This document shows, in pieces, positions 1,462 to 48,100 of a DNA stretch of 64,000 nt. The notes below the pieces were generated by a model. That model searched no databases, was not told the DNA's origin, and was given only the letters and a program-made list of their open reading frames with translations. Within the stretch, counting starts at the first letter, position 1; each line of letters opens with the position of its first letter. The DNA comes from Marchantia polymorpha subsp. ruderalis (Eukaryota > Streptophyta > Marchantiopsida > Marchantiales > Marchantiaceae). The position numbers and the translations under genes are program-made. The stretch covers positions 4,982,501 to 5,046,500 of the forward strand of contig AP031356.1 in assembly GCA_037833965.1 (NCBI GenBank), read 5' to 3'.

Positions 1462-2631
<1,170 letters not shown>

Positions 2632-7655: not shown

Positions 7656-9780
7656 TTGCTGTTTTACCTGCAACAGCGCACAATAAGAAAATTGTAGTCA
7701 AAACACGGAGTATGCCGAATGATGAAATGCACCCAACATTCCTAAATGATGGCAGAAGCTGTCCAGATAAAAATTGGAGAAAGCCACTCACATAATGAAT
7801 AACATGGTTGTTTGTAGGCATCATCTTCCTCAATAGGAGGCGGTTTAAGTCCATAAATCATATCACAACTCATATCTTCAAAATCTGTTGATTTTCGTGA
7901 CACAATGCCAAAGTAAGTCAGCCTTTAACAATTGCGAAAGGGTTCTCACAATCCTACCATCACTTCAGTCACAACACGGAAGTCTATCAGTCAAGAGATT
8001 TGAAGGCTGAATGCGTACTTGGATTCATCGTCAGCGGCATGCCGAACTGCTTGCCGATGAATTCTTGCGTCGGATTTTTGCAGAGGTTGACGCATAAACC
8101 GACACATTGACTATTTTCTAAATACCTGAGAAAATAGCTTAATCAGCGTCAAGATTAGACATGAAAATACTAAAGACTTGTTATGGAGAAAAATATTTGG
8201 CAGTAGATCGCCGCATAGAGAATAGGGTGGCTGTCTCAGAAGTACCTGCACTTTTTTATATGTACCGTACTTCTCATCATCACTCCATTCACTTCCGCCT
8301 CCCTGATCTACAAATAATGAAACAAAGGGTCAATAATCCTATATGGAACGATCTCCTTAAGGCAGGTTCAGCGTGCATGAATTCAGGTTTTGTATAGAAC
8401 GAAAATTTCTTACCTCGGTATCACCAATGAGCCATCTAAAAAACAACTTTGTGAAAACCGCGTAGTACTCGTTCAAAAATGTTGCTTTTGGAACAAGTCG
8501 GAACTGCGCAGAAGAAAATTCAAGAGAATAAGGGTGCAACTTTCCGGTACCCATTAATCTATCCGCAGTGATAGATAGCTATAGCGAAATCCGATCCAGA
8601 CTCCGAGAAACTACAACTTACTAACAAGAAGCAGTGCATTCAGCGGTCCTTTATGTACTTCACTTTCAGAAACCGCAGTTTTTACTATTTGTGTTGAATT
8701 CGACGCGAGTAGTAGGAAAGACTTTCAAGCTAGTTTAAGAACAAGCCATTTCGACTCCGGGAAAACCTCGAAAACGTACTGTGAAGAGGAGCCAGCTGGG
8801 CAAAACCATGTGAAGCAACTTGTGAACTGTATCACGCTGCGAAGAGGCAGGAAGACCATGAACCAATTTCCTGGTCATGTCTACGAAACCATCGTAACCT
8901 TCGAGCTCTGTAGTCTTACCTGAGTTCACACGAATGCAATCCAATATTAACCAAAAGTACGTCCCGCCGAGGGACCAACATTCGATTGGCACAATCACTT
9001 GTAGACAGTGGACCCAAGAGTGTATGAATACAGGTTGGAGGTCTTTGCCTCACCGCTCTCTCCATTATACAAACAACAAAGTCAAGAAGGAAGAGAGTCA
9101 CTATCCAGTCGTTACTCGGAAAGATACCCGTCTTCCATGTAGAACATAACTACAGCGACAAAAGACTGCCACAGAGGAACCAAGCCAATCTTGTCACCTT
9201 GATACCTAATATGCCCTTTAGCAGTTAATATTCAATTCATTGCATGCAATCACAGTAGTGAAGGTTCAGTCTCAGTGGGCACGAAAATCGGCTCCAGTGC
9301 CACGAAAGACTGAACGATTGCGAAATTGTCCCAAATCTGCTAGAATTCGTAATTCAGGTTGGACAAGATCACCAATCTTGTAATAAACAGTTAAACTGTA
9401 CAGTTAAGTAGGGGAAAATTATATAAAAAAGTGATTCAAGTATGAGCAGAAACGAAAACAGAAACCAACAGTATAGAGAGAAAGACAGTACCCGACAGTC
9501 GCTCAAGCCGATTCGTGAGAAACTGGATGGATTTTTTCTCAAGCCAAGAGTCCTCGTACTGAGTAGGTACATTCAAATGTGGCGCAGGTGCAGGAACCAA
9601 CTCTTCCTGCAATACGCAATATACCTTGCCCCTTCTCACGAATGCATTCCTCGTGTTCTGGGAGCGAACGAGAGGAGAAGGAAGAAATGTTGCTGATCCT
9701 AGGCCCTTCACTCCAAGGCCTGAGGTTGACACCAACGGCCCAGAACAAAGAGAATTCATCGTCCTCTGCACAGCTGCCAT
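7633..9780 (-). CDS. D27: DWARF27-like beta-carotene isomerase, seven exons
   Basis: Splicing 9492-9780, 8780-8919, 8414-8503, 8246-8307, 8019-8125, 7792-7884 and 7633-7667 gives 271 residues. Every join has GT/AG and matching phase. D27 proteins are plastid iron-containing enzymes that isomerise the C9 double bond of beta-carotene, the first step towards carlactone and strigolactones. Family marks include [19 protein letters not shown] (about 78-96), [43 protein letters not shown], the cysteine cluster CVGLCVNLC (201-209), FEDMSC (ending at 236), KQPC (257) and a [11 protein letters not shown] tail. The first 50-60 residues are rich in S, R and A without acidic residues, like a chloroplast transit peptide. 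The length is close to that of known D27 proteins (about 260-280). Whether it is D27 itself or a D27-like paralogue cannot be settled here. The start is the first ATG of exon 1. Confidence 0.93.
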
Positions 9781-10242
9781 ATTATGGTATGACTGATCTC
9801 GTACTGTATTTTTCAGTTTATACTATGTAAATGTTGAATTGATTGGGTTCTCGTCGAGTTGCACAAACCGTCCACTAAAAATGTGTCAGCTCATAATTTA
9901 ATTTCCAGTCTCCGTGACGGGTTTTTCCGAGAGACAAGACAGAGCAGGAAGTAGGAGCAATTGTCCAAACACTCGAGATTCACCTGCTTTTTCAGCAGAA
10001 CGCCTTCAGATTATATAGAGGACTCGGAAGCGCTTGCTTCCCGAATCTTGGAACCTGGAAACATGATTCCCTGTAATTCTACAGCTCAAACCGGAACTGT
10101 ATAATCCTGAAGCTTCAACCGTCATTCTTACTTCCACGGCACCTGCCTCGACAAGGACGATTCTTGAGTCCACGCATTGAATCTCAGATTGGGGCAGTCT
10201 TGACTTCGGGAAGTTCACTCGGGCTCCATTTGGAATGAAACA

Positions 10243-14119: not shown

Positions 14120-15013
14120 GAGTTAAACCTCCCGATAGTGTCACCTCTTGTGAGTGGCATACTCCCATTAGTGACATGAAAATGAAGAACCATTAGTTTC
14201 TAACGGGTAATTTTATCCAATAATAACAGTACGTCATTATTGTTAATAGTGTCATTAGATTTTTCAAGAGTGACTATGTCGACCTTTAATAACTATCATA
14301 ATTACCAAAAGTCTTTGTTCAGAGTTAAAAGTCTACATTCGGAGCTTGTTGATTGGTCTATCCCAAGTCTTCTCAGTGGTTACAATATTCTCAGACCTTG
14401 AATCCGTGTCACTGATCAAATGATGTGAGCGAAGAAGTCTACGTCTGTCTCTGCTCACTCGTTGCAATCTGGTTGTGCGATGTTTAAACCCTTGTGGGAA
14501 GAGTGCTGGAAGGAAATTGAGACAAATCGAGTGGAAAGAAGAACAGGTCGGTTCTGCCCGTGGGATATTTTCACGCCTTTTCAAGTTGTTCAGGATGGAG
14601 CCAAATTCATGAGGAGTAAAACAAGTCGAAAGATTTCAATTTTCATGGGTGGCTCCGGGTTGATTTAGAAAATCCAAAATTTCCAACTTCGTCTTCACGT
14701 CCAAACAAAGCTTGCGTTTAGACATGTGTGAATAAAAACGGGTGTAGATTAAGAGAGAAAAAAAACTCACTCCAAACAAGTACAGATTGCGTTGAGAGAG
14801 AACGACTACCAAATGCATAACAACTGTGACAGATTGTAGCGAGAGAGAAAGAAACTCCCCCAAGGCACTATTACAAATTTGTTGAGAAAGAAAGAAGCGC
14901 CCACCGAACGCAAATAACGCGAAAAAGATTAGATATACTCTTGTGAGTGACACCTCCGAATAGTGACATAAAACCCTATAACGGTTATGTGTCACTATTG
15001 GGAAGTTTAACTC
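14120..15013 (-). mobile_element. Relic of a CENP-B/Tigger-like (pogo group) DNA transposon
   Basis: Inverted arms lie at 14120-14144 (starting GAGTTAAACC) and 14989-15013 and match at 22 of 25 bases. On the minus strand between them, 14636-14725 encodes MSKRKLCLDVKTKLEILDFL, which resembles the start of the DNA-binding helix-turn-helix of CENP-B, Jerky and Tigger transposases. After an in-frame stop at 14636-14638 the same frame continues with SILNNLKRRENI, like the end of that domain. No catalytic DDE region is recognisable. The element is short (about 0.9 kb) and decayed. The right arm itself contains a smaller palindrome around TAGTGACATA. Confidence 0.45.
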
Positions 15014-15238
15014 TGTAGTATGATTCTGACTTGATAACCGCCCAATCATGAGGAAAAATTTCATTATTTTATTGGGTTGTTCACGCACTGTGTTCACTAC
15101 AGTATATAGTAGTGTTTGACTCTTCCTTCACTGCAAAGTTTTTCCCTTGCACATTCTTCTCATTTCTATAATCGTCATTATTTTGCCTGTAGATAAACAG
15201 TGTATTGTTCACTTTTGATTTTTAAATTAAAATATCAT

Positions 15239-16052: not shown

Positions 16053-16113
16053 CTACAGAGAGGAAAACACCGCGAGCACTGAGCAAAACCTTGAGACAAA
16101 ATATGCTCCATCA

Positions 16114-16158
16114 TCCACGCAGACTGCACCGATGGTCAATCGGTGCAATCTGCGTGGA
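16114..16158 (-). repeat. 20-bp stem, 5-base loop hairpin downstream of micropeptide ORFs
   Basis: Arms 16114-16133 and 16139-16158 are reverse complements with one mismatch, around a five-base loop. In minus-strand RNA the odd pair becomes G-U, so the whole stem can pair. It lies just 3' of the last micropeptide-like ORF on the same strand. It could stabilise or end a transcript, act as a small-RNA precursor, or be the trace of a small inverted-repeat element. Confidence 0.7.
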
Positions 16159-16182
16159 CAAATTACGTCCTCATCCCGTAGA

Positions 16183-16245
16183 TCAGACAGTCCAGAAGTC
16201 CACAATGACGAATTCGAGCACAGCAGCATGAATCATCACCAGCAT
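16183..16245 (-). CDS. Diverged fifth micropeptide-like ORF (20 residues)
   Basis: Reads MLVMIHAAVL, then EFVIVDFWTV and TGA. Aligned codon by codon with the last 18 codons of the upstream copies it matches at about 60% of bases and keeps the central isoleucine-histidine pair and the final phenylalanine codon. The family's usual stop codon is TGG here, so the frame runs three codons further. The glutamate inside the hydrophobic stretch makes it a poorer membrane span. It is either a decayed copy or one with a changed role. Confidence 0.35.
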   Translation of the reverse strand: MLVMIHAAVLEFVIVDFWTV

Positions 16246-16281
16246 GGCTCCTGATGATCCCAACTTTGCAGTCTTCGAGAT

Positions 16282-16350
16282 CTAGAAGTACGCCATGAGG
16301 CAGATGAGAACCACGACGTGAATTATGGCTAGTACAGTGAGCTGACTCAT
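16282..16350 (-). CDS. Micropeptide 1 of the tandem cluster (22 residues)
   Basis: The ORF starts MSQLTVLAII, has the conserved histidine at position 11 followed by VVVLIC, and ends LMAYF. Apart from Ser2, Gln3, Thr5 and His11 it is entirely hydrophobic, so it could form one short membrane span. The start codon has A at -3, a favourable plant context. The next copy lies 73 bases upstream. I know no named family with this sequence. The case for it being real is the conservation of start, stop, length and pattern across the neighbouring copies, not similarity to known proteins. Confidence 0.6.
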   Translation of the reverse strand: MSQLTVLAIIHVVVLICLMAYF

Positions 16351-16423
16351 AATGAATCTCCCCCGCTCGCTCGCACACGCGCTTATCTGATATGGGATCT
16401 TTGAATTTCTCTCTGATTACAAG

Positions 16424-16492
16424 TTAGAAAAAAGCCATGAGGAGCAAGAGACCCAAGACGTGAATGATGGCTACAACAGTAAGTTGGCTCAT
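16424..16492 (-). CDS. Micropeptide 2 of the tandem cluster (22 residues)
   Basis: Starts MSQLTVVAIIH and continues VLGLLLLMAFF before TAA. It has the same length as copies 1 and 3, with A at -3 of the start. Differences from its neighbours are conservative (V/L, G/A, F/Y), as expected under selection for a hydrophobic span with a polar N-terminal cap and a central histidine. It begins only 44 bases downstream of the stop of copy 3, too close for a conventional separate promoter. Confidence 0.6.
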   Translation of the reverse strand: MSQLTVVAIIHVLGLLLLMAFF

Positions 16493-16536
16493 GATATATC
16501 TTCAAGTCTCACTGGGCTACAGTTGGTATTCTCCGA

Positions 16537-16605
16537 CTAGAAGTAAGCCATGAGCAGAAGGAGAGCAACGACGTGAATGATTCCTAGCACCGTGAGCTGA
16601 CTCAT
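16537..16605 (-). CDS. Micropeptide 3 of the tandem cluster (22 residues)
   Basis: Starts MSQLTVLGIIH and continues VVALLLLMAYF before TAG, with A at -3 of the start. DNA similarity to copy 1 is high at the start (ATGAGTCAGCTCAC is identical) and the end (TACTTCTAG), so these copies arose by local duplication. It is separated from copy 4 by 147 bases with no recognisable further copy. Confidence 0.6.
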   Translation of the reverse strand: MSQLTVLGIIHVVALLLLMAYF

Positions 16606-16752
16606 GATGAGCTCGGTGGCACTAGAACCAATTGCTAGACGTAGTACCCAATTCAACTACTAGGTCACCAGATTGCGATCAGTGACGAGCAATTCAAAGA
16701 TCTGAAGAACTAGGAATCGCCGCGGCAGACTTATAGCAACCTCCCTGAGGAT

Positions 16753-16824
16753 TTAGAAGTATGCCATCAGTAGAACGAGTCCGATGAAATGGACAATGGC
16801 AACGATTGTCAGCATCCGCATCAT
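16753..16824 (-). CDS. Micropeptide 4 of the tandem cluster (23 residues)
   Basis: This is the 5'-most and most divergent intact copy. It starts MMRMLTIVAIVH and continues FIGLVLLMAYF before TAA. The second and fourth codons are also ATG, so a 20-residue product starting MLTIV is possible. It keeps the L-T-x-V core, histidine at the family position and the LMAYF end, but has arginine in place of the Ser-Gln cap. G is at -3 of the first ATG. Confidence 0.55.
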   Translation of the reverse strand: MMRMLTIVAIVHFIGLVLLMAYF

Positions 16825-19515
16825 GTCTACCGAACGAAGAAACTCCGAATATACTGGACCTAAACCTTCACGACAGCAGCGGAGGATAGAACGGGTTCAA
16901 ACTATACGATGCTCGACGGCTGAAAATCACCTTTCGATGTGAATTTCTATCCTGCTGCCCGAGAGGCACGCTTTATGGGAAGGCTCGTCGAACATGTCAA
17001 GTTCTTTATCTAGTCAACACCGGAAGGTGAGGCCACGAGCCTCTGTAGGAAGCCGTGAAAACTCAGGTCGCTGTGGTCGAGCCAAGTGGACGTTTGCATG
17101 GCCGGCAGACCGTCCAGACATGGCAGACAACACTCGTGCATTGGCCCTGCGCTTGACAAATATGCAGACGATCGATAAAAGCCGAGGATTCCGCGATCTT
17201 TCGCTGAATTTTATCCTCGCAGTTTAATATTTGGAACACGATCCAGCACAAGACTATCTATTGCTCACGCGTGTGCATCCACAAAAGGAGGCCCGTAGTC
17301 TAGACCTGAAGAACAAACATGCTTTTCGGAATTATATTTTCACTTTGAATTCTGAGAAAGCCACCAATCCGTCTAAATTTCATGCAGTTCTTTGTTTTTG
17401 AGGTTCCGATCGGGTTGAACGAAGGAAATCATTAAACCCTAAATTCTTTGAATTTAAGCGTGGTGGCAAAACAATCGAAATAAATATCTGCAAAGCCGAA
17501 GAAGGTTAGTCTGGAGACAGTGAATGGATAGCGGTTGTCCCGCCACCTTAAAACACTAAGTTCACTTCCAATGCTCCGAGCCAAGATATGTACGTACAAA
17601 ACAAAATTTGATCAACAAGATCGTTTTGCTATGTGAAATATATATTGGACAACTTCACATTCCTTTTTCTTTATTCACAAACATCAGTAATCAGAAGATT
17701 TCTTCAATCCGTTTCATATTGAGGATACCATGTACACTTGTCTCATGAAGACAAAGATGGGATTTCTGATAGCGTACTTGTGGAATGAAGAGAAAGATAC
17801 AAAGGTTTAGAGATGTTCTTGAGTTTCACTTCATTATTTCTAAACTTGCACAAACTCAACTTGGAATGTATGGGGTGAACTTGTTTTTTACAATAATCTT
17901 AAATTTCTGCCGGTTTGTCAAAATGTCAAGTAAGATGTAACCAAAAGCAATCATTTTGCTGTCATCTACTGAATGCTCGATAAGCTCGAAAATTAACGCT
18001 AATCGTGTTGCCTTGTGTAATCATACGAGATCGTTCACAATGGGTATAATCAACAATAACTGCAAAATATAACTATCACTTCAATTTTGTACTAGAGATA
18101 GCATCAACACCATACTTTTGCACCAAAAATGAAATCAAATTATTTTTCATTCTAAATTACAGCTCATCTGATTATAAAAAACATAAATATGAATACAAAC
18201 AATCTTTTAAATTATATTCTTGCTTTATGAATTCCAAAATTATTATTTTGATCACCACTTCCTTGATGATTTGATTGAAATGCGTAAAATAACAACTTAG
18301 ATCTATTATATTGGTTAACAAACAAAATTGAAAACTCCTTTGATCTTACATGCGTAAAATCACTAATAAGATTGATCATTTTTTATATATAACAATAATT
18401 TGTAATTCACTGAAGTAAAAACATTTTACTGGGATAAGATATTCTAATTTCGAAATTTATTTAAAATGAATTATAGTATTATTGTTACTATTTTAATTAA
18501 GGTAATTAATTATAAAAACTTATTTTAACAGCAACAAACAACTCAAAAATTGTCAACTGTTTTATCGACATTAAGTACAGACACTATTAGTGTAATCAAA
18601 ATTGTATCAAACATTACTATTCATCACGTTTTATTTTTAATTATGACATAATAACTTACTATAATATGATACTGATGGTTCAAGATTTTTTCACTACCAT
18701 CAAAAGTATAGTAAGATATTATTGTGATAAAAAATCAATATTAGGTTATATATCTGTAATCTGTTTTCTAAGAAAAATCATATGTAAATTATAATACATT
18801 CAACACTTTTCACAAGAATCATCAATTATTCTAGTTTTTTTAAACATCTAACATCAACATGAATTGTCTGTATAATTCATGTTGGAGACTTGTAACAAAT
18901 ATAGTCTTAAAATAATACAAGCCTAATTTTTGATTTTATTTTCTTTCATGATTCATAATCTTAATTTGAATCTTTGATAAATGCATTATTTTATTTTTTT
19001 CCATACAAACCAGCGATACATGTAAAATATCATAATTAACAGTATGCCTCTAAAGAAAAATCAAAATAATTTCAAATGAATATCCGAATAAATTAAATTT
19101 ATCAAATTTTCTAAGAATAAACTATTAATAATGTATTTTTGAATTATTTATAAAAAATATAATCACAATACGTGAAAAGTGAATAAAGAATTTATAATGA
19201 ATGTAACAAATATAAGCGCTCAAATTTTAAATTATAAAAATAAGAATAAGAGTATCAACTAAAATATTTTTATTCCATTTTCTTACTAAGATAATCATAA
19301 ATACTTTATATAGTGTATAATATCCAAAGCAATCACAAACTGAAGTTATAATAATTTATTATAAATGTAATACTATATTGTATCAAATTTTTTCAACATA
19401 AACTCATTACTTTATCAAAATTTCCAACTTCAAAACTGAAAGTTTATGTGCTTATACCATAATTCTCTAAATTTAAAAAAACAACATATCAACTTGGAAT
19501 ATTTTTTTTCAAGTG
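16825..19515. other. Upstream flank of the cluster, then AT-rich spacer
   Basis: 16.83-17.3 kb should hold the leader and promoter of the minus-strand micropeptide transcript. A 77-residue plus-strand frame at 16994-17227 has no recognisable domain and I do not call it. From 17.5 kb to the copia LTR the sequence is strongly AT-rich with no gene or intact element that I can recognise. Confidence 0.4.
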
Positions 19516-19923: not shown

Positions 19924-20320
19924 AGTAATAATATACAGAGGTAACTCAACAATTTCACCTTAACTCATGTCAAGGAATTTAAGTCAGCTCTCTTACCTAT
20001 ATTATTACTCTCATATCAAGATAAAGTAATAATATACAGAGGTAACTCAACAATCTCACCTTAACTCACGTCAAAAAATTTTAGTCACCTCTCTAACTCA
20101 ATTATTACTCTCTTATCAAGATAAAGTAATAATATACAGAGGTAACTCAACAATCTCACCTTAACTCATGTCAAGGAATTTAAATCAACTCTCTAACCTA
20201 TATTACTACTCTTATACCAAGATAGAATAATAATATACAGAGATAACTCAACAATCTCACCTTAACTCATGTTAAGAAATTTTAATCACCTCTCTAACCT
20301 ATATTATTACTCCACGGGGA
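19924..20320. repeat. Four-copy tandem repeat, about 100-bp unit, inside copia 3' region
   Basis: AGTAATAATATACAGAGGTAA and the following sequence recur at 19924, 20025, 20125 and 20224 with moderate divergence. The array lies between the RNase H region and the 3' LTR of the copia element. Confidence 0.85.
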
Positions 20321-23032
20321 GTTCTAGACAGAAGCCTATCACAAGGTACTTCTTTAAACGAGAGTTAACTAAAACTAAGCCATAGCCATAAAAGGATAGA
20401 GTAACAATATATAGAGGTAACTAAGAACCATATCTCTCATGCTCCCTATGCACAACTTGCATAGTAGCACAATGTCGGCTGAAACTCTCAAAAGGAATAA
20501 CTTTGGTCAATGCATCAGCTGGATTGAATTTACCGTCAATCTTGACTAGCTCAATTGTTTTATCAGACACTATTTGTCTAATAAAGTGATACCTAATGTA
20601 GATTTGCATCACTCCGCTATCCATGACTTGATTCGCAGCCAAATGTAAAGCACTCTGGCTATCACAATGAAGATTGACCACGCCTTGTGTTAGTACCATC
20701 TCCATGATAAGCTTATTTAGCCAAATAGCTTCCTTTGCCGCTTCTGCTGCTGCCACATACTCAGCTTCTGTTGTTGACTGAGCTACGCACTTCTGCAAGG
20801 TAGATTTCCAACTGATGTTTCCGCCGCCAAGTGTAAACACATATCCAGTTGTAGATCTACTCTTGTCTAAATCTTGTCCGTAGTCAACATCAACGTAGCC
20901 AAACAAGTACATGGCATTGGGTAATAGGCCATCAAACAATAAGCCATAATCCATAGTACTCTTCAAATATCTCATAATCCATTTCACTGCTTCCCAGTGA
21001 ACTTTTTCTGGATTTGACATGTACTTGCTCACCTTTCCCATTGCCAGAGCAATATCAGGCCTAGTGCACACCATTAAATACATGAGGCTGCCTTTAGCTT
21101 GTTCATAGGGAACACATGACGATCTTCCCTTTTCCACAGCATATGTAGGACATTGGGCTGCAAAGAGTTTAAAATGTGCCGGCAAAGGAGTCCAAACCCC
21201 TTTCGAATCGGCCATGTTGAACCTGTCAAGTATACGGCGAACATACTTGCCCTGACATAGCCATAGCTTGTTCTGTTCAAAATATCTATAAATATCCATG
21301 CCTAGTATCCTTCTTGACTCCCCCATATCCTTCATCTTAAATGTAGACTTCAGCTGGCTCTTGCATTCATCGACATCGGATTGGTTTTTTGCCAAGATAA
21401 ACATGTCGTCAACGTAGAGTACTAAAATGATGAGATTGAAAGTCTCATCATTCACTTTCTTCATATAGACACAAGGATCATACACGCTTTGTAGAAAACC
21501 TTGTGCCTTCATAAACTCATCAAAACGTGTATTCCACTACCTAGGAGCTTGCTTCAGTCCATATAATGATTTCAGTAATCTACAGATCCACCTTTCCTGG
21601 CCTTTGACCTCAAAGCCAATTGGTTGTCTCATGTAGATCTCCTCCTCTAAATATCCATAAAGAAAAGCTGTAACCACATCCATCTGATACATAACAAGAC
21701 TGAATGTTGCGGCCAGTGCACATACCAAATGAATTGTAACGTATTTTGCTACAGGCGAAAAACTTCGTTGTAATCCACACCCTTTTCCTGTGTGAAACCT
21801 CTAGCCATCAATCTAGCTTTGAAGATTCTTGCATCATCTCCTGCTGGATTATCTTTCAGCTTGTACAACCACTTGGAGTCAATCACCGTATGATCTTTAG
21901 GGAGCTCAACCAACTCCCAAGTCTTGTTGTCAATCAGTGACTGCATCTCCCGCTTCATAGCAACATTCCATTCAAGCTTGTTGACCGAAGCTTGAGCTTC
22001 TTTGTATGGAGAGTGTTCACCTTCTTCCAAGATCAACGCCATACCATCTTCATCTTCAAAATTAAGGTCACGATCTTTGAGAATAGATGAGTTGGCCCAT
22101 ACACCAAATCTCTCAAGCGCTCTACTAGATCGTTGTGATCTCATAGTAGAAGTTTACGTTGATCTATCTCGTTTGGTATTGTTGCAATATGCTCATCAAC
22201 AATAGCCTGCTCTTGTGGTTCTTGTTCCTCAAGGACTTGCTCCACATGTATCGGTGTTTCTTCATGTGACGGATCATTAGTGATAGAATGATCAAACTCC
22301 CCCACAACAATATCAGTGAGTAAAGATTTTCTCTTGTTAGCCTCCACATTCTCCCCCTCTTTCAATAAGCCAGGCTCATTGAAAGAAACATCTCTACTAA
22401 GAACCACCTTCCTAGCAACTGGAACCCATAGCCTGTAACCTTTCACGCCGCTAGCATATCCAAGAAAATGACATTTCTTGGATGTAGTATCTTATTTTGT
22501 CCTCTGTTCCTTAGGCATAAGGGGATAAGCAGTACAACCAAAAATTCTCAAGAAACTATAATCTGCCATCCGTTTATGTCTCAGTTCAAACGGGGTGGAG
22601 AAATTGATTGCACTAGAAGGAGAAAGGTTTACCAAATAAATTATTGTGTTGACAGCTTCGGCCGAAAATTCCCCTGGTAAACCGGATTCGCTTAGCATAC
22701 TCCGCACCTTCTTCAACACTCTGGCATCATAGGCCATCCGTGTACAAGTCGTTCGCCTCAGTATCAAGATGTTCAGCAACGTTCGCCACTGAAGGGGAGG
22801 TTGTACTTGTCATTCGGCAAAACTTCATGATGTGACCTTTCTTATCACAACTCCAACAAACAACATTCTTCTTGTCATAAACTTGGTTGAGCCATAAACT
22901 GTACTTTCCTTCGATCATGAGATTTTGATCTCTGTCTCTTCAAGCCTGGACGCCGTGAATCATGGATGTCTCTCGGTTGTGACTGACCTCATGCCATAAT
23001 AAGTGTTGTCCCAGAAGTGGATGGAACGTAAG

Positions 23033-23452: not shown

Positions 23453-24066
23453 ATGGTATCAGAGCGACCTTGCTCTTTCCTTGAGTGTGGATTACCCCTC
23501 ATGGAATAGCAAGTGAGTGATGATGGAGTGTAGTCTTGAGAGTGTATAGAGGTTGGCAGAGGTCATTCATCTGCATGTAGAGAGAGGTGGAAGGGGGACA
23601 TTGTGTTTTTGCAGATATGGACGGGATTGACAGGAATCCAGTACCGCACTGGCCAATTCCTAACCTATTCGATATTCACCTTCGTTGCATGGAGAAACAT
23701 CATTTTCGGATGTACCTTGTGGCTTGTTGGGGTGCAGATTTTATGACTAGAGTGATGGAGTCAAGAGTGCCACTGATTCTTCCAATAGTTACTTATGGAG
23801 AGACTTGGGATTGTACTATATACATTCTATACTAATTGTTTCATGGATTTGAACCGCGAACCACCTGTCCTGGTTCGATTCAGCACTTATGTAGAGATTA
23901 GAACAGTATATAGACAGAAGAGGATATGGAGAGATTTTCTTGTGAGGAATTATGGAGAGGAGTACTATAGAGCTGTGATAGAGTCACCTGCACCTTTTGT
24001 GACTCCTTTGTTGAGAGGTCACATAATGATTATACTCACTTTGTATTAGAGGGAGTGTGAAAAAGC

Positions 24067-25230
24067 ATGGGAACATCAATTGATATGGGTGAGGTTCTCA
24101 ATGCAATCATGGCGGAGATGAAGGAGTTGAGAAAAGCGATAGTAGATGGGCATACCAAGCAGCAAGCCATGGAAGATAAAATCTTTGCATTAGAGAGTGA
24201 GAAAGTAGATAGAGAGAGAGTTGGAGAGATGGAAGTTGAACCTCAAGTTCAAGCTTCCCAAGTTCAGCCAGAACCAACTCCTATTGATGCAGCAGAGGCA
24301 AATAGGAGACGTCTTCAAGAGATTGAAGATCAAGCAAATCTTTTGCTTCGAATGGGAAAATCCTGTAAGGTGGAAGCTTACAAAGGGAGTAGAGCAATGG
24401 GAGTGTTAGAGGGATGGATTATGAGGATGAATATTCATTTATCCCATTTTCATGTTTCTGATTATATTGCAGGAATGTTCATGAGATCTTATCTTACGGA
24501 TAAGGCTCTCACATGGTACACAACATGGGAGAGAATGCTTTCAGAACGAGGTGCTACCATTTCGTGGAGTGGAATGCAGGAAGGACTTCTGCAAAATTTT
24601 CAAGCGGTGGATTCTCTTCAAACTGCAAGAATGAAGTTGTGGGATCTGAAGCAGAAAGGAGGTATTCATGAGTACATTGAAGAATTTCGTGATCTTCAAG
24701 TATCTATCATGGATATGAGTGGAGCTGAAGCCTTGGACGTGTTCAAACGAGGCTTGAAAGATCGAATTCGAAAGGAGGTGATGGTAAGCAATCCATCTAC
24801 TGTGAATGAAGCAATCGCAATTGCTCAACGAATTTCAGGTGCTTTTGGTGTCACACACGGTGAGCCAGTGAGCAATTTTAGAGATCCATCTGGTCCAACA
24901 CCGATGAAGTTGGGAAACCTTCGACGTAGAGAAGGTTTTGCACCAACAAGAGGACCACCACCAAGATTTGGAGGTGAGATTAGGCGACCAGGAGTTCCAA
25001 ATTTGCAAGAAGGTTATGCAAATAATGGAATGGTTCGAGGAGGAGCTGGAGTTCGTGACAATCGCCAATGCTATGCATGTGGACGAATGGGTCACATAGC
25101 CAAGTTTTGTCGAGTTCGGCCGACACAACAAGGAGGACGGCCCATGCAGCGACGACCGTTCAACAATATGGAGGGGATAGAGTATGAAGAGGTGGAGGAA
25201 GCAGTTTCGGGAAACGAAGATCACCAGTAA
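24067..25230 (+). CDS. gag region of the gypsy element
   Basis: 387 residues of the element's capsid/nucleocapsid region. An N-terminal coiled-coil-like stretch ([11 protein letters not shown]) is followed by the retrotransposon gag domain ([13 protein letters not shown]) and a CCHC zinc knuckle ([14 protein letters not shown]) near residue 340. The gene lies downstream of the 5' LTR and primer-binding site. About 600 bases of leader separate it from the LTR, with short frames of no evident function. Confidence 0.9.
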
Positions 25231-25232
25231 TC

Positions 25233-28200
25233 TTGCCTCGCGGCCTTACTGGTTCTACAAAGCGAAGAAAAGGCGAGGTTGGAAGAAAGCAATGGTTGGG
25301 AGCTCATGGAAGGAGTAAGAAGCAAGCTCAACTCATTGTCACTGATGGTTTCATGGAAGGACACAAGGTGAGAGTTTTAATTGATCCTGGAGCAACTGAG
25401 AATTTTCTATCAAGGAGTGTTGCTATGAAGTTAGGTTTGATGTTGATGAAGGACGTGAGTGAAGAAGTTGAATTGCCAAACGGGCAAACTGAAGTGATAG
25501 AAACACTACCACGGAGTGTAGAATTATCCATAGGTAGATACAAGGAGAGCATTGAATGGAGAGTAATTCGTTTAGCTCGGTATGATGTCATCCTTGGAAT
25601 GCCATGGATGGAACAATATAATCCGAAGGTAGATTGGAGAAGAAAAGTGATTACAAGTAGCGGATGGAAGATCTATGGAGATAGAATTAGATCTCAGAAT
25701 AGGAATTTACCCCTCTTTGTGATGGGTACAGCATCCATTTCTAGAGATGATGTATGTTTCCTTGGACTTATAAGAGATATTGGGTCCACGGACAAACCTT
25801 ACATCCCGGAGTCCTTGAACGACATTTTTATGGAGTATAAAGATGTTTTTCCAGATGATCTACCTGCAGGATTACCACCAAAGAGGCGAGTTGATCACAA
25901 GATTGAGGTGATACCTGGAAGTACACCAACTTGCAAAGCTCCATATCGTTTGGCTCCAAACGAATTGGAAGAATGCAAAGCTCAAGTGGAGGAGATGTTG
26001 AGCAAGGGATTCATTCAGCCAAGTGTTTCACCTTATGGAGCTCCAGTACTCTTTGTGAAGAAGAAGGATGGATCCATGAGACTATGTATCGATTATCGCG
26101 GGTTGAATCAGCAAACGGTGAAAAACAAATATCCATTACCTCGTATGGATGATTTGTTTGATCAACTTCAAGGAGCGAAGTACTTCACCAAGCTAGATTT
26201 GAGAAGCGGCTACAATCAAATTCGAATTGCAGATGAAGATGTTCACAAGACAGCTTTTCGTACTAGGTATGGACACTTTGAGTATCTGGTGATGCCTTTT
26301 GGTCTCACTAATGCACCAGCTACATTCATGGGATTGATGAACGATATCTTTCGCCCTTATCTAGATAAATCTGTCATTGTTTTTCTAGATGATATATTGG
26401 TGTATAGCAAAACTTTGAGTGATCATAGAAGTCATTTACGAGAGGTACTTCAAGTTTTAAGAGACAATCAATTGTATGCCAAAGCTTCAAAATGTGAATT
26501 TGGCAAGTCAGAAGTAGATTACTTGGGTCATAGAGTTACAGCTACAGGAATCCAAGTGATGAGTGAGAAGATAGAGGCCATTCAGAAATGGATAGCACCT
26601 GAGGATCAAACTCAATTGAAGAGTTTTCTAGGGCTCACTGGATTCTATCGTAGATTTGTGAAAGGTTTTGCTCGACTAGCTCAGGCCTTGACTTCCATGT
26701 TAGGGAAAGGTCAGAAGTGGAGATGGGGAACAGCTCAAGAGTTAGCTTTTCAAGCATTGAAAGATGCTTTGTTACACGCACCTATTCTCAAGTGGTATGA
26801 TCCTAACCGTTCTATCAAGTTGGCCACTGACGCATCAGGTACAACAGTAGGTGGCATACTTCAACAAGAATGGGAGGATGGATGGCATCCAGTTGCTTTC
26901 TATTCTCGAAAGTTGGTGGCGGCGGAACAAAATTATCACACGACAGAACGGGAGGAGTTAGCTATCGTGTTGGCAACCAAACATTGGAAGCATTATCTGG
27001 GTGATAAGGAGTTTGTGGTGGAGACTGATCATAAACCCTTGGTTTATTTGGAAACTCAGAAGGATCTGTCCAAACGACAAATTCGATGGGCAGAGTGGCG
27101 TCAACGCTTCAACATGAAGATTGTGTACGTGGAGGGAAAGAAGCAACTTGCAGATGCTCTCACACGCATGCCTTGTTTGAATCATGTTGCAGAAGTGAAA
27201 ATTCAGGCGGATTGGTGGAGCAAGATGTCACAAGCCACAAAGGAGGATGAAGAGATCACTCGAGCACTACAAACTGGAAAGGCAGAGAAATCTCGAGGTT
27301 TGGCGTTTTACAATCAGCGTATATGGATTCCACAAGATCACGATTTGCGCACAATGATTTTGGCAGAAAGTCATGATACAGCCATTGCAGGTCATGTGGG
27401 AGTGGAGAAAACCGTGGAGAGTATACAACGAGTGTACTTTTGGCCCAAAATACGTGAGGATGTGGAGTCTTACGTTCGAAGTTGTGTTGCTTGTCAACAA
27501 AACAAGGCAAGTAATCAAAAACCAGCGGGTTTATTACAACCTCTTCCTATTCCCGAACAGCGGTGGGAACATGTCACCATGGATCTTGTATGTGAGTTAC
27601 CAAGGACTTCGTTAGGACATGATTCAGTGGTGGTTTTTGTGGACAAATTGAGCAAGATGATTCACATCAGGCCAACCACAAAAACAGTAACAGCTCCACA
27701 ACTAGCTCAATTGTATCTAGACGCAGTTTTTGTGAATCATGGCTTAAGCAAAGTGTTAATCACGGATAGAGGTACTCACTTCACTAGTTTATTTTGGAAA
27801 ACTTTGTTTAGTTTTTTCAAAACAAAACTAGCAATGTCAACGGCCTATCACCCTCAAACTGATGGACAAACTGAGAGGGCAAATAGAACCATAGAGGATA
27901 TGCTACGAGCATTCACATTAGAAGAGCAAGAAGAGTGGGACAACCTTTTGCCACTTGTGGAATTTGCATATAACAATTCTGTTAATGCATCCACAAAAGT
28001 GTCTCCATTTTTTCTTATGTATGGAGCTCATCCGATAACTCCTTCAAGTTTGATGAGACTTCCGAAAGGAGAGGAGTTTTCGACCAAAGTTGCAGCAGTC
28101 AACGAATTCATGGAGCATATTCACCGAGGACTACATCAGGCCAAGGAGAAGTTGGTGATAGCTCAAAATCGGCAAAAGCAGCATGCCGATGCTCATCGTA

Positions 28201-28661
28201 GAGAAGTGATTTTTGAGGTTGGAGATCATGTTTGGTTATCTACAACGAATTTGTCTCTTGTAGGAACACCAAAGTTAAACCCTAGGTACATTGGTCCATT
28301 TTTGGTTTTGAAGCGTGTTGGTGAAGTGTCATACAAGTTGGAACTTCCGTCACATATGAAAATACATCCAGTATTTCATGTGTCACGATTGCGAAAACAT
28401 GTACCACGACCAAAACAATTCACCAATCAACCAGCACCACCTCCTCTTCCAACCTTGATAGCAGATCATGAGGAGTTTGAGGTAGAAAAGATACTCAAGA
28501 AACGTATTCGAGGTCATAAATATCCCAAAGTAGAGTATTTGATTCAATGGAAAGGCTATCCATCGTATGAATCAACTTGGGAACCAGCTAAAAATTTAGC
28601 AAATGCACCTTTGATAGTTCAGGAGTTTGAACGTATGTGCAACGAGGACGTTGCATCTTAA
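25233..28661 (+). CDS. pol region of the gypsy element with chromodomain
   Basis: 1,142 residues in a different frame from gag, beginning right after it, an arrangement known in this family. Domains in order: aspartic protease ([10 protein letters not shown], about 49-58), reverse transcriptase ([12 protein letters not shown], about 380), RNase H ([12 protein letters not shown], about 530), integrase with HHCC zinc region and core (TDRGTHFTS, about 845) and a chromodomain ([17 protein letters not shown], about 1100). Chromodomains of this type steer insertion to particular chromatin. Confidence 0.94.
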
Positions 28662-34359: not shown

Positions 34360-34799
34360 ATCTCCCCCCTTAACCCATGTTAAAAAGAAACTCAGTAACC
34401 TCTTTAACCTATATTATTACTCCGCGAGAACTTTTAGACGAAAACCTACCACAAGATTATTCTTTAAACGAGAGTTCACTAGAACTTAGTCATAACAGGA
34501 AAGAGTTATAATATACAGAGGTAACTAACAATCTTCCCTTTAACATGTGTTAAGAAATCTTAGTCACCAGTGCACTCTTAAACTCTCATATCAAGTTAAG
34601 TATAGTTCTTCTTAACTTAGGTTAAGTTACTATTACACTTTTAAACTCTCAGATTTTTACCTGTCAATATGAAGATCATGTACAATCTTCCACTATTTCA
34701 ACGAGCTATGCACATTAAAATGATAAGATTACTCTCCCCCTCTTTCAATGAGCTAGACACATTGAAAGATAATCTTTTTGACAAGAATTCTTTTGACAC

Positions 34800-35410
34800 T
34801 CACCACTCACCGACACTCCGACTTACTGCATCTACGATTAACTATTACTATTGTTCAAAACTTACCGCGTCCACGCCTTACTGTCGTCCGCGAATTACTG
34901 CGTCTATGCTTTACCGGATTCATGTTTTACTATGCCCGCAACTCATCGTCGCCCGCAACTTATTGCATCCACTCTTTACAGCGTTCACGCCTTACTGCGC
35001 TTGCGACTCACAGTCGCCCGTGACTTACTACGTCCTTGTCTTACTGCATCTGCGACTCACAATCACCCGCGCCTTACTGCACCCGCGACTCACAGTTGTC
35101 CGCGCCTTCCTACGCTTATGCTTTACCGCATCCATGCCTTACTGAGCCCGCAACTCATCGTCGCCCGCGACTTACTGCATCCACGTTTTACTGCGGTCAC
35201 ATCTTACTGCGCTTGCGACTCACTGTCGTCCGCGACTTACTGCGTCCACGCCTTATTGCACCCGCGACTCACAGTCGCCTGTGACTTACTGCGCCCGCAA
35301 CTCACAATCGCTCGCGATTTACGGCGTTCACGCCTTACTGCGCCCGCGACTCATCCTTGCCTTAGATTTACTGCGTCCATGCCTTACTGCGTCCGAGACT
35401 CATCCTAGCA
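34800..35410. repeat. Minisatellite array inside the non-autonomous element
   Basis: Short related words (GCGACTTACTGCGTCC, ACGCCTTACTGCGC, GCGACTCACAGTCGCC) alternate over about 600 bases, with a basic unit of 15-18 bases and a looser 45-50-base higher order. It is much more GC-rich than its surroundings. The arrangement leaves two overlapping plus-strand frames open (34669-35145 and 34851-35408), which are therefore probably not genes. Confidence 0.8.
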
Positions 35411-45100: not shown

Positions 45101-48100
45101 CTTCATGTTCAAGCTGTCGTGGTGCAGAACATTCAAGTATGTCTATACGACCCTTGGGCACATTATGCGTTTTGCTTTAGGTGTTACCCACATGGTGCTG
45201 CGGAAGTCGAGGATCCTCAGTTTCAATGTCATAGTTTTGACGGTCGTATTCGTGAATCGTTATGCACATCATAGATTGAGAATTATCTACGCTTCTGAAC
45301 GACGGCTAGTTCTCAACGTTGTTAACTATGCTACGTTTAACGGTGGTCGCAACGCCAATATTTGGTGAATGAAGGCTATTACGCAAGGTCTGCGAGCTTA
45401 GCCCGTATTTTTCTTCTTTGCAGGAATGTTTTGCGACATCACCTCCAAAGGGACGAGTTGGAAACAGTGCTATTGATTACAAAGCCAAGAAAGTTCGGGA
45501 GAGAAGAGCATTAGTAGAAAATTCAGTTCAGAAATGTCGAGATATATGTGCAGATGTGGATGTTGCCGTCCAAAATCGCTTGGCTCAGCTGAATATTGGG
45601 TCCGAGAGGAGTCTGGAAGCTCATGCGTATGATTCTGGACGCCAAGTAATGGAGAAAAACCCCACACACAGTGTTCCAGACACGAGAGATGCCCAGACGC
45701 AGGCTATGTTCGGGCCTAGAAACAATGGGTCTGATGCCCAATCAAGTTCACCATGTGAACTTACTTACTGTGGTGGTTGTGTATCATCGGCTCTCTCAGC
45801 TGGTAACATGCATGACTTTGAGCAGGGTTCTTTGTCCAAGGAACAGAACTTGAAATGTGAATGTGATCTTATTGCTGAGACACATTCTAGGGTGATGAAG
45901 TTGCTCAGAGGATCAGTGGGTGGCAACGATTATCTATCTCATGTTGGAAGGGACCGTCTCACATCTGTTAAGTGTGCAGTAGATATGGGTTTTGCATCGT
46001 TCTCTCCAGATTGTACCGAAGTCGATGCGAAGAGTTCCCTGCATATCAGTACGCACAAGCATTCTACTCCCAGTGTACACCAAGCAGGATTGGACGGCGA
46101 AGAACCTGAAAGTATCTGGAGGGATTTTATATCCTGTCCGCATATTGGGTGTTCTTTTGGTACATTGGGTAGAAATTGTGACAGGTGTGGGCATCAAGAA
46201 AGAGCTTTTATAGGTGAGAACCAGATCCCTTTAGCCATGAGTAACTTATGTCGTCACATACTAAAGCTCTTAAACCCCTCTTTGAAACTTGAAGATGTGC
46301 GTTCGGAAGGTGGAGTGCGTGACGTTCCAGTTATTGAGGACATCAATCTGAAGGCACGATTGGCCAGTGCGAAGGTCTTGACTTCATGGTTATTCGAAGA
46401 GTTGCGCAGTATCCTTGCACATGATGTGCATTGCTTAAAGTCACACGTCAAAGAGAGAGGTAGTGTGGGGCTGCTAATGGAAGGACTACAGGTGATGCTG
46501 CTCGAGAACGCAAGTTTAGCCATCGGTCTAATGCAAGCTACTTGCCAAGATGAGAATTCGATGAATGATCTCATTTTAAGACTCCAAGGCTTGAAAGACG
46601 TCTTCAACACCGTGCCAACCGTAGAAGCCGAGTTGACCAAGGCGGGAATGGAAACGGAGAAGCACGAGCAGGTAAGGAGTAGTCGTGTTTTACCTCAGCT
46701 GGATGATACTAAAGTGCTCGACTGCTTCTCTGATCCCTTGTTTTGTCAGGTTGGGGTTGAGGGAACCCCAAGCAATGTTACAAAGTTAACTGCCGCTGGA
46801 CCAGCTCCTGGGAAACATAGTAGAAGCCTAGAATCTAGACAGCTGCAGGATAGAGGCATGGCCACCAAATATATAGGTCCCGGTGGGGCTCTGGAAAACG
46901 AGTCGACTCGAGCATTGTTTCTTGAGCAGGGTATCATGGGAGTAGAATCTTTGAATGTTAACTCGTGTTCTATGGATTTACTGGGCAAAGACAAATCTTC
47001 CACACAGGCAACACCTGGATCATCGCTTGACCAGGCGAGTCCAGTTTCCGTAGAAGCGTGTCAAGAGGATGGTTCTCTCTTCACTAAATTGCGAGATCCT
47101 GGATCAGATGAACAATCTAGTCTGATTGAGAGATTGAAGATGTCAAGAGAACACATAGCCACTTTAGATCGACAACTTGCTGTACTATACATCGAGAAGG
47201 ACAGGATCATGAAGGCTTTGGTAGAGGAGCTCAATGGGAAGGAAGAAATTGTGACAACGACGAAGCTGGAGAAGATCAGGCTAGCCCAAAGTTTAAAAAC
47301 TTTTATTGGTGAAGTGGCCCTTCACGACGAAGTGCTTTCGGCTGTATGCCTTGGTATTCATAATTTCGAGAAGGAGTTGGAGCAGAGGAGACCAAATCAC
47401 GGAGAAAGCCTTAGTCAAGTTAGTGTATATTCATAGCAGTCATTAGTCAAGAAGATTCATCGGTGAGATGAATGTTCTCAGGTTTGAAGTGGAGTGGTCC
47501 AAAGCAGAGAGGAGCTCGTGGTCGGTAGCAAGAGTCTATCCAAAGTGAATTGTTGGTTAGACTTTCTCCTTGAAAGTCGAAAAAAATTTCACTCATGGTT
47601 TTCTCCTCATATAGTTAGTTCATAAATCAAGTAAGAATTGTTATGTGGACGCAATAAAGGAATGGGTTTCCCTTGTCAAGGATGAAAGTGCGCTTGTTGC
47701 AGGGCCGATCCTTCATAACATGAGCCCCTGGATCCTTTCAGTCTCTGAACGTTAGCCTCCCTTACATGTCTTCTTTGATTTCAGACTTTCATCTCTCAGG
47801 ACAAATGACTCTTGTCTACCTGTTGGCTGATGCCTCATACAACTTTTGTGATTCAGTGTCGGGGTATTTTGGCACCACTTAGTTTTGCGACTTTAGAAGT
47901 TGGGGTATATAATCCGCAATAAATGTTCTGTCAAGGGCTGACTCAGAATTTGTATCTTCAGACAGAAACCCCGATCCAAATTACTCAAGTGGCAGCACCG
48001 AAAGAACAAACCTTCTCAACGGTAAAGTTTTTTGTATTGTTGAAAGTAGATCATCCACTTACCTGTTATCTGTATTCCATTACTGATACACCTTCGGGTG

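What the first reader, a model, noticed from the sequence alone, without database searches (positions are those of the whole stretch)
16282..16824. Tandem cluster of four ORFs for 22-23-residue membrane micropeptides
On the minus strand, four ORFs at 16753-16824, 16537-16605, 16424-16492 and 16282-16350 encode almost the same hydrophobic peptide: M-S-Q-L-T-V at the start, a histidine after A/G-I-I/V, and L-M-A-Y/F-F at the end. Start, stop and length are kept and all four starts have a purine at -3, while the spacers do not align. Spacing is 44-147 bases, too small for ordinary separate plant genes, so a multi-ORF (polycistronic-like) mRNA, a set of upstream ORFs, or a tandem duplication read from one promoter are the options. 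Few eukaryotic cases of clustered peptide ORFs on one transcript are known (Drosophila tarsal-less is the classic one). I know no plant family with this sequence.
Basis: partly seen in the sequence, partly recalled or inferred. Interest (0 to 1): 0.9.

Follow-up and report, generated by a model that had tools for sequence, protein, structure and literature searches.

The report
Tandem membrane micropeptide genes, probably one mRNA
A plant-like nuclear genome carries four neighbouring tiny genes for almost the same 22-residue membrane peptide, kept by selection and laid out as if read one after another from a single message, which would be unusual for a land plant if experiments confirm it.

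Summary
The four minus-strand ORFs are real and exactly placed. They encode 22, 22, 22 and 23 residues, and they are the only matches found in the 241 Mb genome. The peptide rather than the DNA is conserved. Third codon positions carry most differences, dN/dS among the three close copies is 0.12-0.25, and 12 of 12 ordered comparisons show fewer residue changes than shuffled differences (P 5e-5 to 0.016). Two other repeat pairs of the window do not show this.

New here: the three spacers contain no ATG, nor do the 170 bases before ORF 1, and every ATG inside the ORFs is in frame. ATGs return 37 bases after ORF 4. This fits ribosomes scanning one mRNA through all four ORFs. Five ATGs lie further upstream, so this holds only if transcription starts below 16995 or they are bypassed. 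No main ORF was recognised downstream, so a uORF set is less likely.

Best reading: an old tandem, probably polycistronic gene for a single-helix membrane micropeptide with an invariant histidine, like tarsal-less in layout but not in sequence. Transcript, translation, location, function and sister-species conservation are untested; no plant collection was at hand.

The parts
16753..16824 (-). ORF 1, 23 aa, MMRMLTIVAIVHFIGLVLLMAYF, most diverged copy; start context GACATGA
16537..16605 (-). ORF 2, 22 aa, MSQLTVLGIIHVVALLLLMAYF; start context ATCATGA
16424..16492 (-). ORF 3, 22 aa, MSQLTVVAIIHVLGLLLLMAFF; start context ATCATGA
16282..16350 (-). ORF 4, 22 aa, MSQLTVLAIIHVVVLICLMAYF; start context ATTATGA
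16825..16994 (-). 170-base stretch upstream of ORF 1 without any ATG (presumed end of the 5' leader; its upstream limit is simply the next ATG at 16995, and four more lie between there and 17300)
16606..16752 (-). spacer ORF 1 to ORF 2, 147 bases, no ATG
16493..16536 (-). spacer ORF 2 to ORF 3, 44 bases, no ATG
16351..16423 (-). spacer ORF 3 to ORF 4, 73 bases, no ATG
16192..16260 (-). possible decayed fifth copy: the triplet aligned to the ATG reads AGG, then a gap of 8 bases, and the triplet aligned to the stop reads TGG
   Evidence: weak: profile E 4.3 for the 64-kb window (best non-member, but the next chance hits are 5.8 and 6.7); alignment P 0.006 to ORF 4, 0.011 to ORF 2, 0.084 to ORF 3, while the best ORF 1 alignment lies in another register. 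Orientation and place beside the array are right
16110..16164 (-). unbroken 23-bp hairpin (three pairs are G-U) with a 5-base loop, -40.5 kcal/mol, about 120 bases after the ORF 4 stop; relation to the ORFs unknown

Best explanation
An old tandem array of a micropeptide gene, most probably read as one multi-ORF mRNA from the minus strand, starting somewhere upstream of 16.83 kb and ending downstream of 16.28 kb. Scanning ribosomes meet ORF 1, 2, 3 and 4 as successive start codons with no other ATG between. They translate them by leaky scanning and/or reinitiation, which short ORFs allow. Each product is a 22-23 residue hydrophobic peptide, just long enough for one membrane helix. It is too short to leave the ribosome tunnel before release (recalled), so it would enter a membrane after synthesis. 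There it would act by packing one conserved helix face (Leu4, Ala/Gly8, His11, Leu15, Leu18, Phe22) against a partner membrane protein, as regulin-type micropeptides do. Four copies would raise the dose. Shown: the ORFs, the peptide-level constraint, one locus in the searches, the ATG-free spacers and near leader. Inferred: the shared mRNA, translation, the membrane site, partner binding.
For: Peptide constraint: NG86 dN/dS 0.177/0.704, 0.111/0.793 and 0.143/1.176 for the three close pairs; silent change not computable (saturated) against ORF 1. 12 of 12 ordered comparisons have fewer residue changes than shuffled differences (P 5e-5 to 0.016; BLOSUM P 5e-5 to 0.0044). Controls: two other repeat pairs show no such excess (P 0.59-0.65), while an antisense polyubiquitin pair whose third positions coincide with ubiquitin's own does (P 0.004-0.006). 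One locus: 4 of 4 hits in each of four genome searches. Scanning layout: 0 ATG in 264 spacer bases against about 5 expected (P 0.0012 of 20,000 dinucleotide shuffles, 0.0077 with mononucleotide shuffles; 233 of 18,030 placements of the same layout in the window, 70 of 6685 when GC-matched). With 150 leader bases added: P 0.0003; 68 of 18,030; 4 of 6685. All ATGs inside the ORFs are in frame. Hydropathy of the best 19 residues is 2.46-2.69. GC is raised between about 15.5 and 17.3 kb.
Against: No transcript or ribosome data; no plant relatives could be sought. The ATG test was thought of after reading the spacers, the leader length was set after seeing the ATG at 16995, and the placements overlap one another. 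If transcription starts as far up as the GC-rich block reaches (17.3 kb), five ATGs (17278, 17141, 17121, 17099, 16995; ORFs of 6-43 aa) precede ORF 1. Periodicity of conserved positions along a helix is only suggestive (P 0.10-0.16). Four separate promoters, spliced isoforms or a spliced main ORF are not excluded.
Confidence: 0.55

Rival explanations
1. A series of upstream ORFs with conserved peptides that arrest ribosomes in the exit tunnel and so control a main ORF further downstream, perhaps joined by splicing. The 22-residue length and the conserved C-terminus before the stop fit in-tunnel arrest at termination.
For: Short ORFs with conserved C-terminal LMA-Y/F-F directly before the stop. 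Conserved uORFs are an established plant mechanism, and some cDNAs carry several (PMC2527020, passages). ATG-free spacers would fit as well. A 163-residue open frame at 14636-15127, minus strand, has a weak Bap31 match (E 0.0058, 17 bits, under the cut-off of 22.7), so a downstream ORF is not ruled out.
Against: No main ORF recognised: of the minus-strand frames listed between the array and the D27-like gene, five were scanned with Pfam and none passes a cut-off; the others were only looked at. The D27-like start is about 6.5 kb away with DNA of 35-39% GC at 12-15 kb between. ATGs return 37 bases after ORF 4. Four near-identical arrest peptides in series would be redundant.
Confidence: 0.15
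2. Four independent small genes, each with its own promoter, formed by tandem duplication.
For: Tandem duplication is evident. Plants have many small genes (recalled).
Against: Spacers of 44, 73 and 147 bases leave little room for promoter, leader and 3' end, and the repeat finder sees only 5 shared bases upstream of the starts. Absence of ATG from the spacers is not required by this model.
Confidence: 0.1
3. A structural subunit rather than a regulator: the peptide is a minor one-helix subunit of a membrane complex, with the central histidine as ligand of a cofactor or a packing residue.
For: Invariant His in the middle of the hydrophobic stretch and conserved length. Very small one-helix subunits are common in organelle complexes (recalled).
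Against: No useful match in solved structures (best E 2.2) or Pfam. Known subunits of this type are mostly 29-40 aa (recalled). No room for a targeting sequence.
Confidence: 0.12
4. No function at the peptide level: a DNA tandem repeat, or an RNA element such as repeated small-RNA sites, that happens to hold ORFs.
For: Other repeats in the window also yield similar short ORFs, some with higher scores.
Against: Silent positions diverge far more than residues; codon-position counts such as 3, 3, 10 and 7, 2, 16. No unusual fold in the four ORF segments (z -0.83 to 1.60). No Rfam match in the window.
Confidence: 0.03

Closest known systems
tarsal-less / polished rice / mille-pattes (insects)
   Same: Four short ORFs for related peptides close together (1.5-kb mRNA, 11-32 aa, four ORFs in Drosophila: PMC11475943, passages).
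   Different: Those peptides share LDPTGQY and have no predicted structure; here they are hydrophobic with a central His. The motif is absent here. Here the single mRNA is inferred, not shown.
Bicistronic nuclear genes of green algae
   Same: Same signature: few AUGs before the last ORF, read there mainly as leaky scanning, with reinitiation discussed (PMC11892635, 12 of 54 passages).
   Different: There two ORFs, not tandem copies of one peptide, and weak context at ORF 1; here four tandem copies, all with a purine at -3.
ENOD40 (plants)
   Same: A supposed non-coding plant RNA said to encode two small polycistronic peptides (PMC10638237, passages).
   Different: Two ORFs, not a tandem series of four copies of one hydrophobic peptide.
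Single-helix membrane micropeptides (phospholamban/sarcolipin type)
   Same: Length for one membrane helix, no soluble domain (family features recalled).
   Different: No sequence relation seen in Pfam; partner unknown; each known one is a single ORF (recalled).
Conserved-peptide uORFs of plants
   Same: Short ORFs with conserved peptides.
   Different: No main ORF recognised downstream; four copies of one peptide.

Membership tests
Polycistronic small-ORF gene (tarsal-less layout) | Several short ORFs encoding related peptides, close together on one strand | tested here: met
Polycistronic small-ORF gene (tarsal-less layout) | Peptides under purifying selection | tested here: met
   between paralogues only; across species not testable here
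Polycistronic small-ORF gene (tarsal-less layout) | All ORFs on one mature mRNA and translated | not testable with these tools
   only indirect: ATG-free spacers and near leader
tarsal-less peptide family proper | LDPTGQY motif in the peptides | tested here: not met
   motif as given in PMC11475943; absent from all four peptides
Conserved-peptide uORF | A main ORF downstream on the same transcript | tested here: inconclusive
   none recognised (one weak Bap31 match under cut-off at 14636-15127); a distant spliced exon is not excluded
Single-helix membrane micropeptide | One hydrophobic stretch long enough to span a membrane | tested here: met
   19-residue hydropathy 2.46-2.69
Single-helix membrane micropeptide | Conserved helix face for partner or self packing | tested here: inconclusive
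   positions 4, 8, 11, 15, 18, 22 are the most conserved of seven heptad phases (mean 0.92 against 0.56 for the rest), but periodicity P is 0.10-0.16
Single-helix membrane micropeptide | Membrane location and binding partner | not testable with these tools
   needs experiment

The most novel reading that the evidence does not exclude
A land-plant nuclear gene that works as a four-ORF mRNA: four tandem copies of one membrane micropeptide translated in series by scanning ribosomes, with selection clearing stray ATGs from the near leader and the spacers.
Probability: 0.5. Interest if true: 0.85.

Novelty: new variant of a known kind. Interest (0 to 1): 0.66.

Why it matters
Nuclear genes of land plants are described as monocistronic with few exceptions (PMC8166872, passages). 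A tandem array with the AUG-depletion signature described for green algal bicistrons (PMC11892635, passages) would give a compact, testable land-plant case. The peptide matches no family in Pfam or NCBIfam over cut-off. Short genes are often judged noise by gene prediction (PMC9901580, passages), so similar clusters may have been missed elsewhere.

Tried and rejected
Homologues elsewhere: none found. Protein collection with the 44-residue stop-to-stop frame around ORF 4 (no candidate shares three 5-residue words). Phage records by tblastn with ORF 4 (no match). Virus and prokaryote contigs with the four-peptide alignment (126 and 21 pattern stretches, none confirmed). Pfam and NCBIfam (nothing over cut-off; ORF 1 matches the leucine operon leader at E 0.022 and 0.024, under the cut-offs of 25 and 59 bits, taken as chance between Leu-rich peptides; ORF 3 matches an importin repeat at E 0.074 and ORF 4 a ryanodine-receptor model at E 1.9, also under cut-off). 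Solved structures (best E 2.2). These results say nothing about sister species.

RNA element: no Rfam match over gathering scores, no tRNA by a bacterial-type search, no unusual fold in the four ORF segments. The hairpin at 16110-16164 is strong (z -10.5), but its 161-base segment matches only itself in the genome search and I could not tie it to the ORFs.

Fifth copy: less firm than it first looked. The best-of-four P of 0.025 rests on an ORF 1 alignment in another register; only the ORF 2, 3 and 4 alignments (P 0.011, 0.084, 0.006) are in the register.

Literature: 10 full-text searches. Among the papers listed (part of the matching ones, seen as titles and starts of abstracts) none reports this peptide or cluster. 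One search searched peptide letters and listed four papers of other fields, judged unrelated from their titles. Figures and most subscription papers are not held. A Marchantia peptide survey (PMC9901580, passages) selected annotated proteins under 200 aa by similarity to Arabidopsis sORFs; the words tandem and polycistronic do not occur in its main text.

Structure prediction was not used: the peptides are shorter than its 30-residue minimum.

Species: nine contigs, 241 Mb and a D27-like gene suggest a Marchantia-type liverwort; that is recall and inference, not tested. A protein search with the 686-residue frame at 45376-47433 gave one unnamed hit and did not name the organism.

Full report
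Check of the observation. MSQLTV begins three of the four; ORF 1 begins MMRMLTIV. Ten positions are invariant: M1, L4, T5, I9, H11, L15, L18, M19, A20, F22; identity to ORF 4 is 73, 82 and 55% for ORFs 3, 2 and 1. The -3 base is a purine in 4 of 4. The ungapped DNA repeat finder sees four copies of 74 bases at 61-81% identity to one copy, reaching 5 bases upstream of the starts.

Single locus, as far as searched. In the window's own 241 Mb genome, protein searches with an ORF 2-like query and with ORF 1 each give four candidates, all here. A degenerate pattern drawn from the N-terminal halves hits 4 times, all here, with 0 in the reversed control. A pattern for the C-terminal end (CTN leucine and TAR stop codons only) hits 4 times, all here, with 3 in the control. 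The patterns were built from these copies, and the protein search scores only candidates of a first look, so distant relatives could be missed. The flanks match only themselves at the limits used.

Constraint on the peptide. Differences fall at third positions: for 21 codons, 2/3/8, 4/3/8 and 3/3/10 at positions 1/2/3 between the three close copies, and 7-9/2-3/14-16 against ORF 1. NG86 gives dN/dS of 0.12-0.25 for the close pairs (0.111/0.793, 0.177/0.704, 0.143/1.176); the silent distance to ORF 1 is not computable (saturated). Of six YN00 runs one gave a value (0.209/0.565 for ORFs 4 and 3) and five failed. Moving the observed differences to random sites of the same sequence gives more residue changes in 12 of 12 ordered comparisons (P 5e-5 to 0.016). 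These comparisons share sequences and are not independent. As controls I ran five other similar ORF pairs of the window. Pairs at 19967/20168 and 35135/34923 (repeats; coding status not tested) show no excess (P 0.59-0.65). The antisense polyubiquitin pair 2114/2342 gives P 0.004-0.006; by coordinates its third positions are ubiquitin's own. The two other polyubiquitin pairs are in a shifted frame and show the opposite (5 of 5 differences at position 2, P 1.0). So the test sees selection where it exists. The duplications are old, since silent sites carry about 0.7-1.2 changes each or are saturated, yet start, stop and length stayed.

One message. Reading the minus strand, no ATG lies between the one at 16995 and ORF 1, nor in the spacers of 147, 44 and 73 bases. 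Within the ORFs every ATG is in frame. After ORF 4 the next ATG comes at 16245 and others follow. For the spacers alone, 5.1 ATGs are expected by dinucleotide shuffles and none occurs (P 0.0012 of 20,000). With mononucleotide shuffles P is 0.0077. Laying the same pattern elsewhere in the window gives no ATG in 233 of 18,030 overlapping placements, or 70 of 6,685 with matching GC. Adding a 150-base leader gives 0.0003, 68 of 18,030 and 4 of 6,685. An earlier run gave 0 of 5000 both ways. The idea came after looking at the sequence, and the leader length was chosen knowing where the ATG at 16995 lies, so the spacer figures are the fairer ones. Further up, ATGs at 17099, 17121, 17141 and 17278 open ORFs of 6-43 residues and the one at 16995 an ORF of 22. 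If the mRNA begins above them they must be bypassed or spliced out. In green algae the same depletion marks bicistronic nuclear mRNAs and is read as leaky scanning, with reinitiation discussed as alternative (PMC11892635, passages).

Surroundings. No convincing main ORF was recognised on the minus strand from 16282 down to the D27-like gene. Frames of 55 residues or more are listed; five of those between 13.9 and 16.2 kb were scanned with Pfam and none passes a cut-off. The longest, 163 residues at 14636-15127, has a weak Bap31 match (E 0.0058, 17 bits against 22.7). The D27-like gene's first coding exon is near 9.4-9.8 kb by my reading of the translation. Its Pfam domain has a weak match and one over cut-off at window 8017-8127. 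GC is 0.395-0.545 in 200-base windows between about 15.5 and 17.3 kb and 0.20-0.43 beyond on both sides, a soft boundary that fits one transcription unit but proves nothing. Upstream lie AT-rich DNA and a Ty1/copia-type fragment.

A possible fifth copy. At 16260-16192 the DNA aligns to the ORFs with AGG in place of the start, a gap of 8 bases and TGG in place of the stop. The profile E-value is 4.3 for the whole window, the best of the non-members but close to the next chance hits (5.8, 6.7). Shuffle P is 0.006 against ORF 4, 0.011 against ORF 2 and 0.084 against ORF 3; the best ORF 1 alignment lies in another register. Place and orientation favour a decayed copy; the evidence is weak. If true, it shows what an unselected copy looks like beside four selected ones.

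How it probably works. The peptide is a hydrophobic stretch of about 19 residues behind a short N-terminus, with the last residue Phe at the stop. At 22-23 residues it is released before it leaves the ribosome (recalled tunnel length of 30-40 residues), so insertion would follow synthesis. Conservation is highest at 4, 8, 11, 15, 18, 22, a heptad face with His in the middle, but the periodicity test is not significant (P 0.10-0.16). I favour a helix that docks on a membrane protein partner. Structural subunit and tunnel-arrest uORF remain rivals.

Comparison with known systems. In layout it is closest to tarsal-less (four ORFs on a 1.5-kb mRNA, peptides sharing LDPTGQY; PMC11475943, passages), but that motif is absent here. 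ENOD40 is said to encode two peptides from one plant transcript (PMC10638237, passages). Plant nuclear polycistronic messages are said to be few (PMC8166872, passages). So it works like a known kind, if the mRNA is single, with a peptide that matches neither Pfam nor NCBIfam over cut-off.

Limits. No transcriptome, no ribosome data, no plant sequence collection. 

Noticed in passing
16110-16164, minus strand: Unbroken 23-bp hairpin (three G-U pairs) with a 5-base loop, -40.5 kcal/mol, z -10.5; its 161-base segment matches only itself in the genome search.
   Followed up: partly
16192-16260, minus strand: Possible decayed fifth micropeptide copy beside the array; weak evidence.
   Followed up: partly
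about 7700-9822, minus strand: D27-like (beta-carotene isomerase type) gene; the genome search gives six matches at four loci for this domain.
   Followed up: partly
14636-15127, minus strand: 163-residue open frame with a Bap31 match under the cut-off (E 0.0058), the longest minus-strand frame between the array and the D27-like gene.
   Followed up: no
1462-2631, minus strand: Polyubiquitin gene with five ubiquitin stretches.
   Followed up: no
20424-21536 minus; 24061-28661 plus: Ty1/copia-type reverse transcriptase piece, and a Ty3-type element with gag, protease, reverse transcriptase, integrase and chromodomain matches in long open frames. Described only.
   Followed up: no
45376-47433, plus strand: 686-residue open frame; the frame has no Pfam match at E 0.01, and one unnamed relative at 35% identity over 67%.
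   Followed up: partly
34645-35408, plus strand: Two long overlapping open frames of imperfectly repeated units.
   Followed up: no
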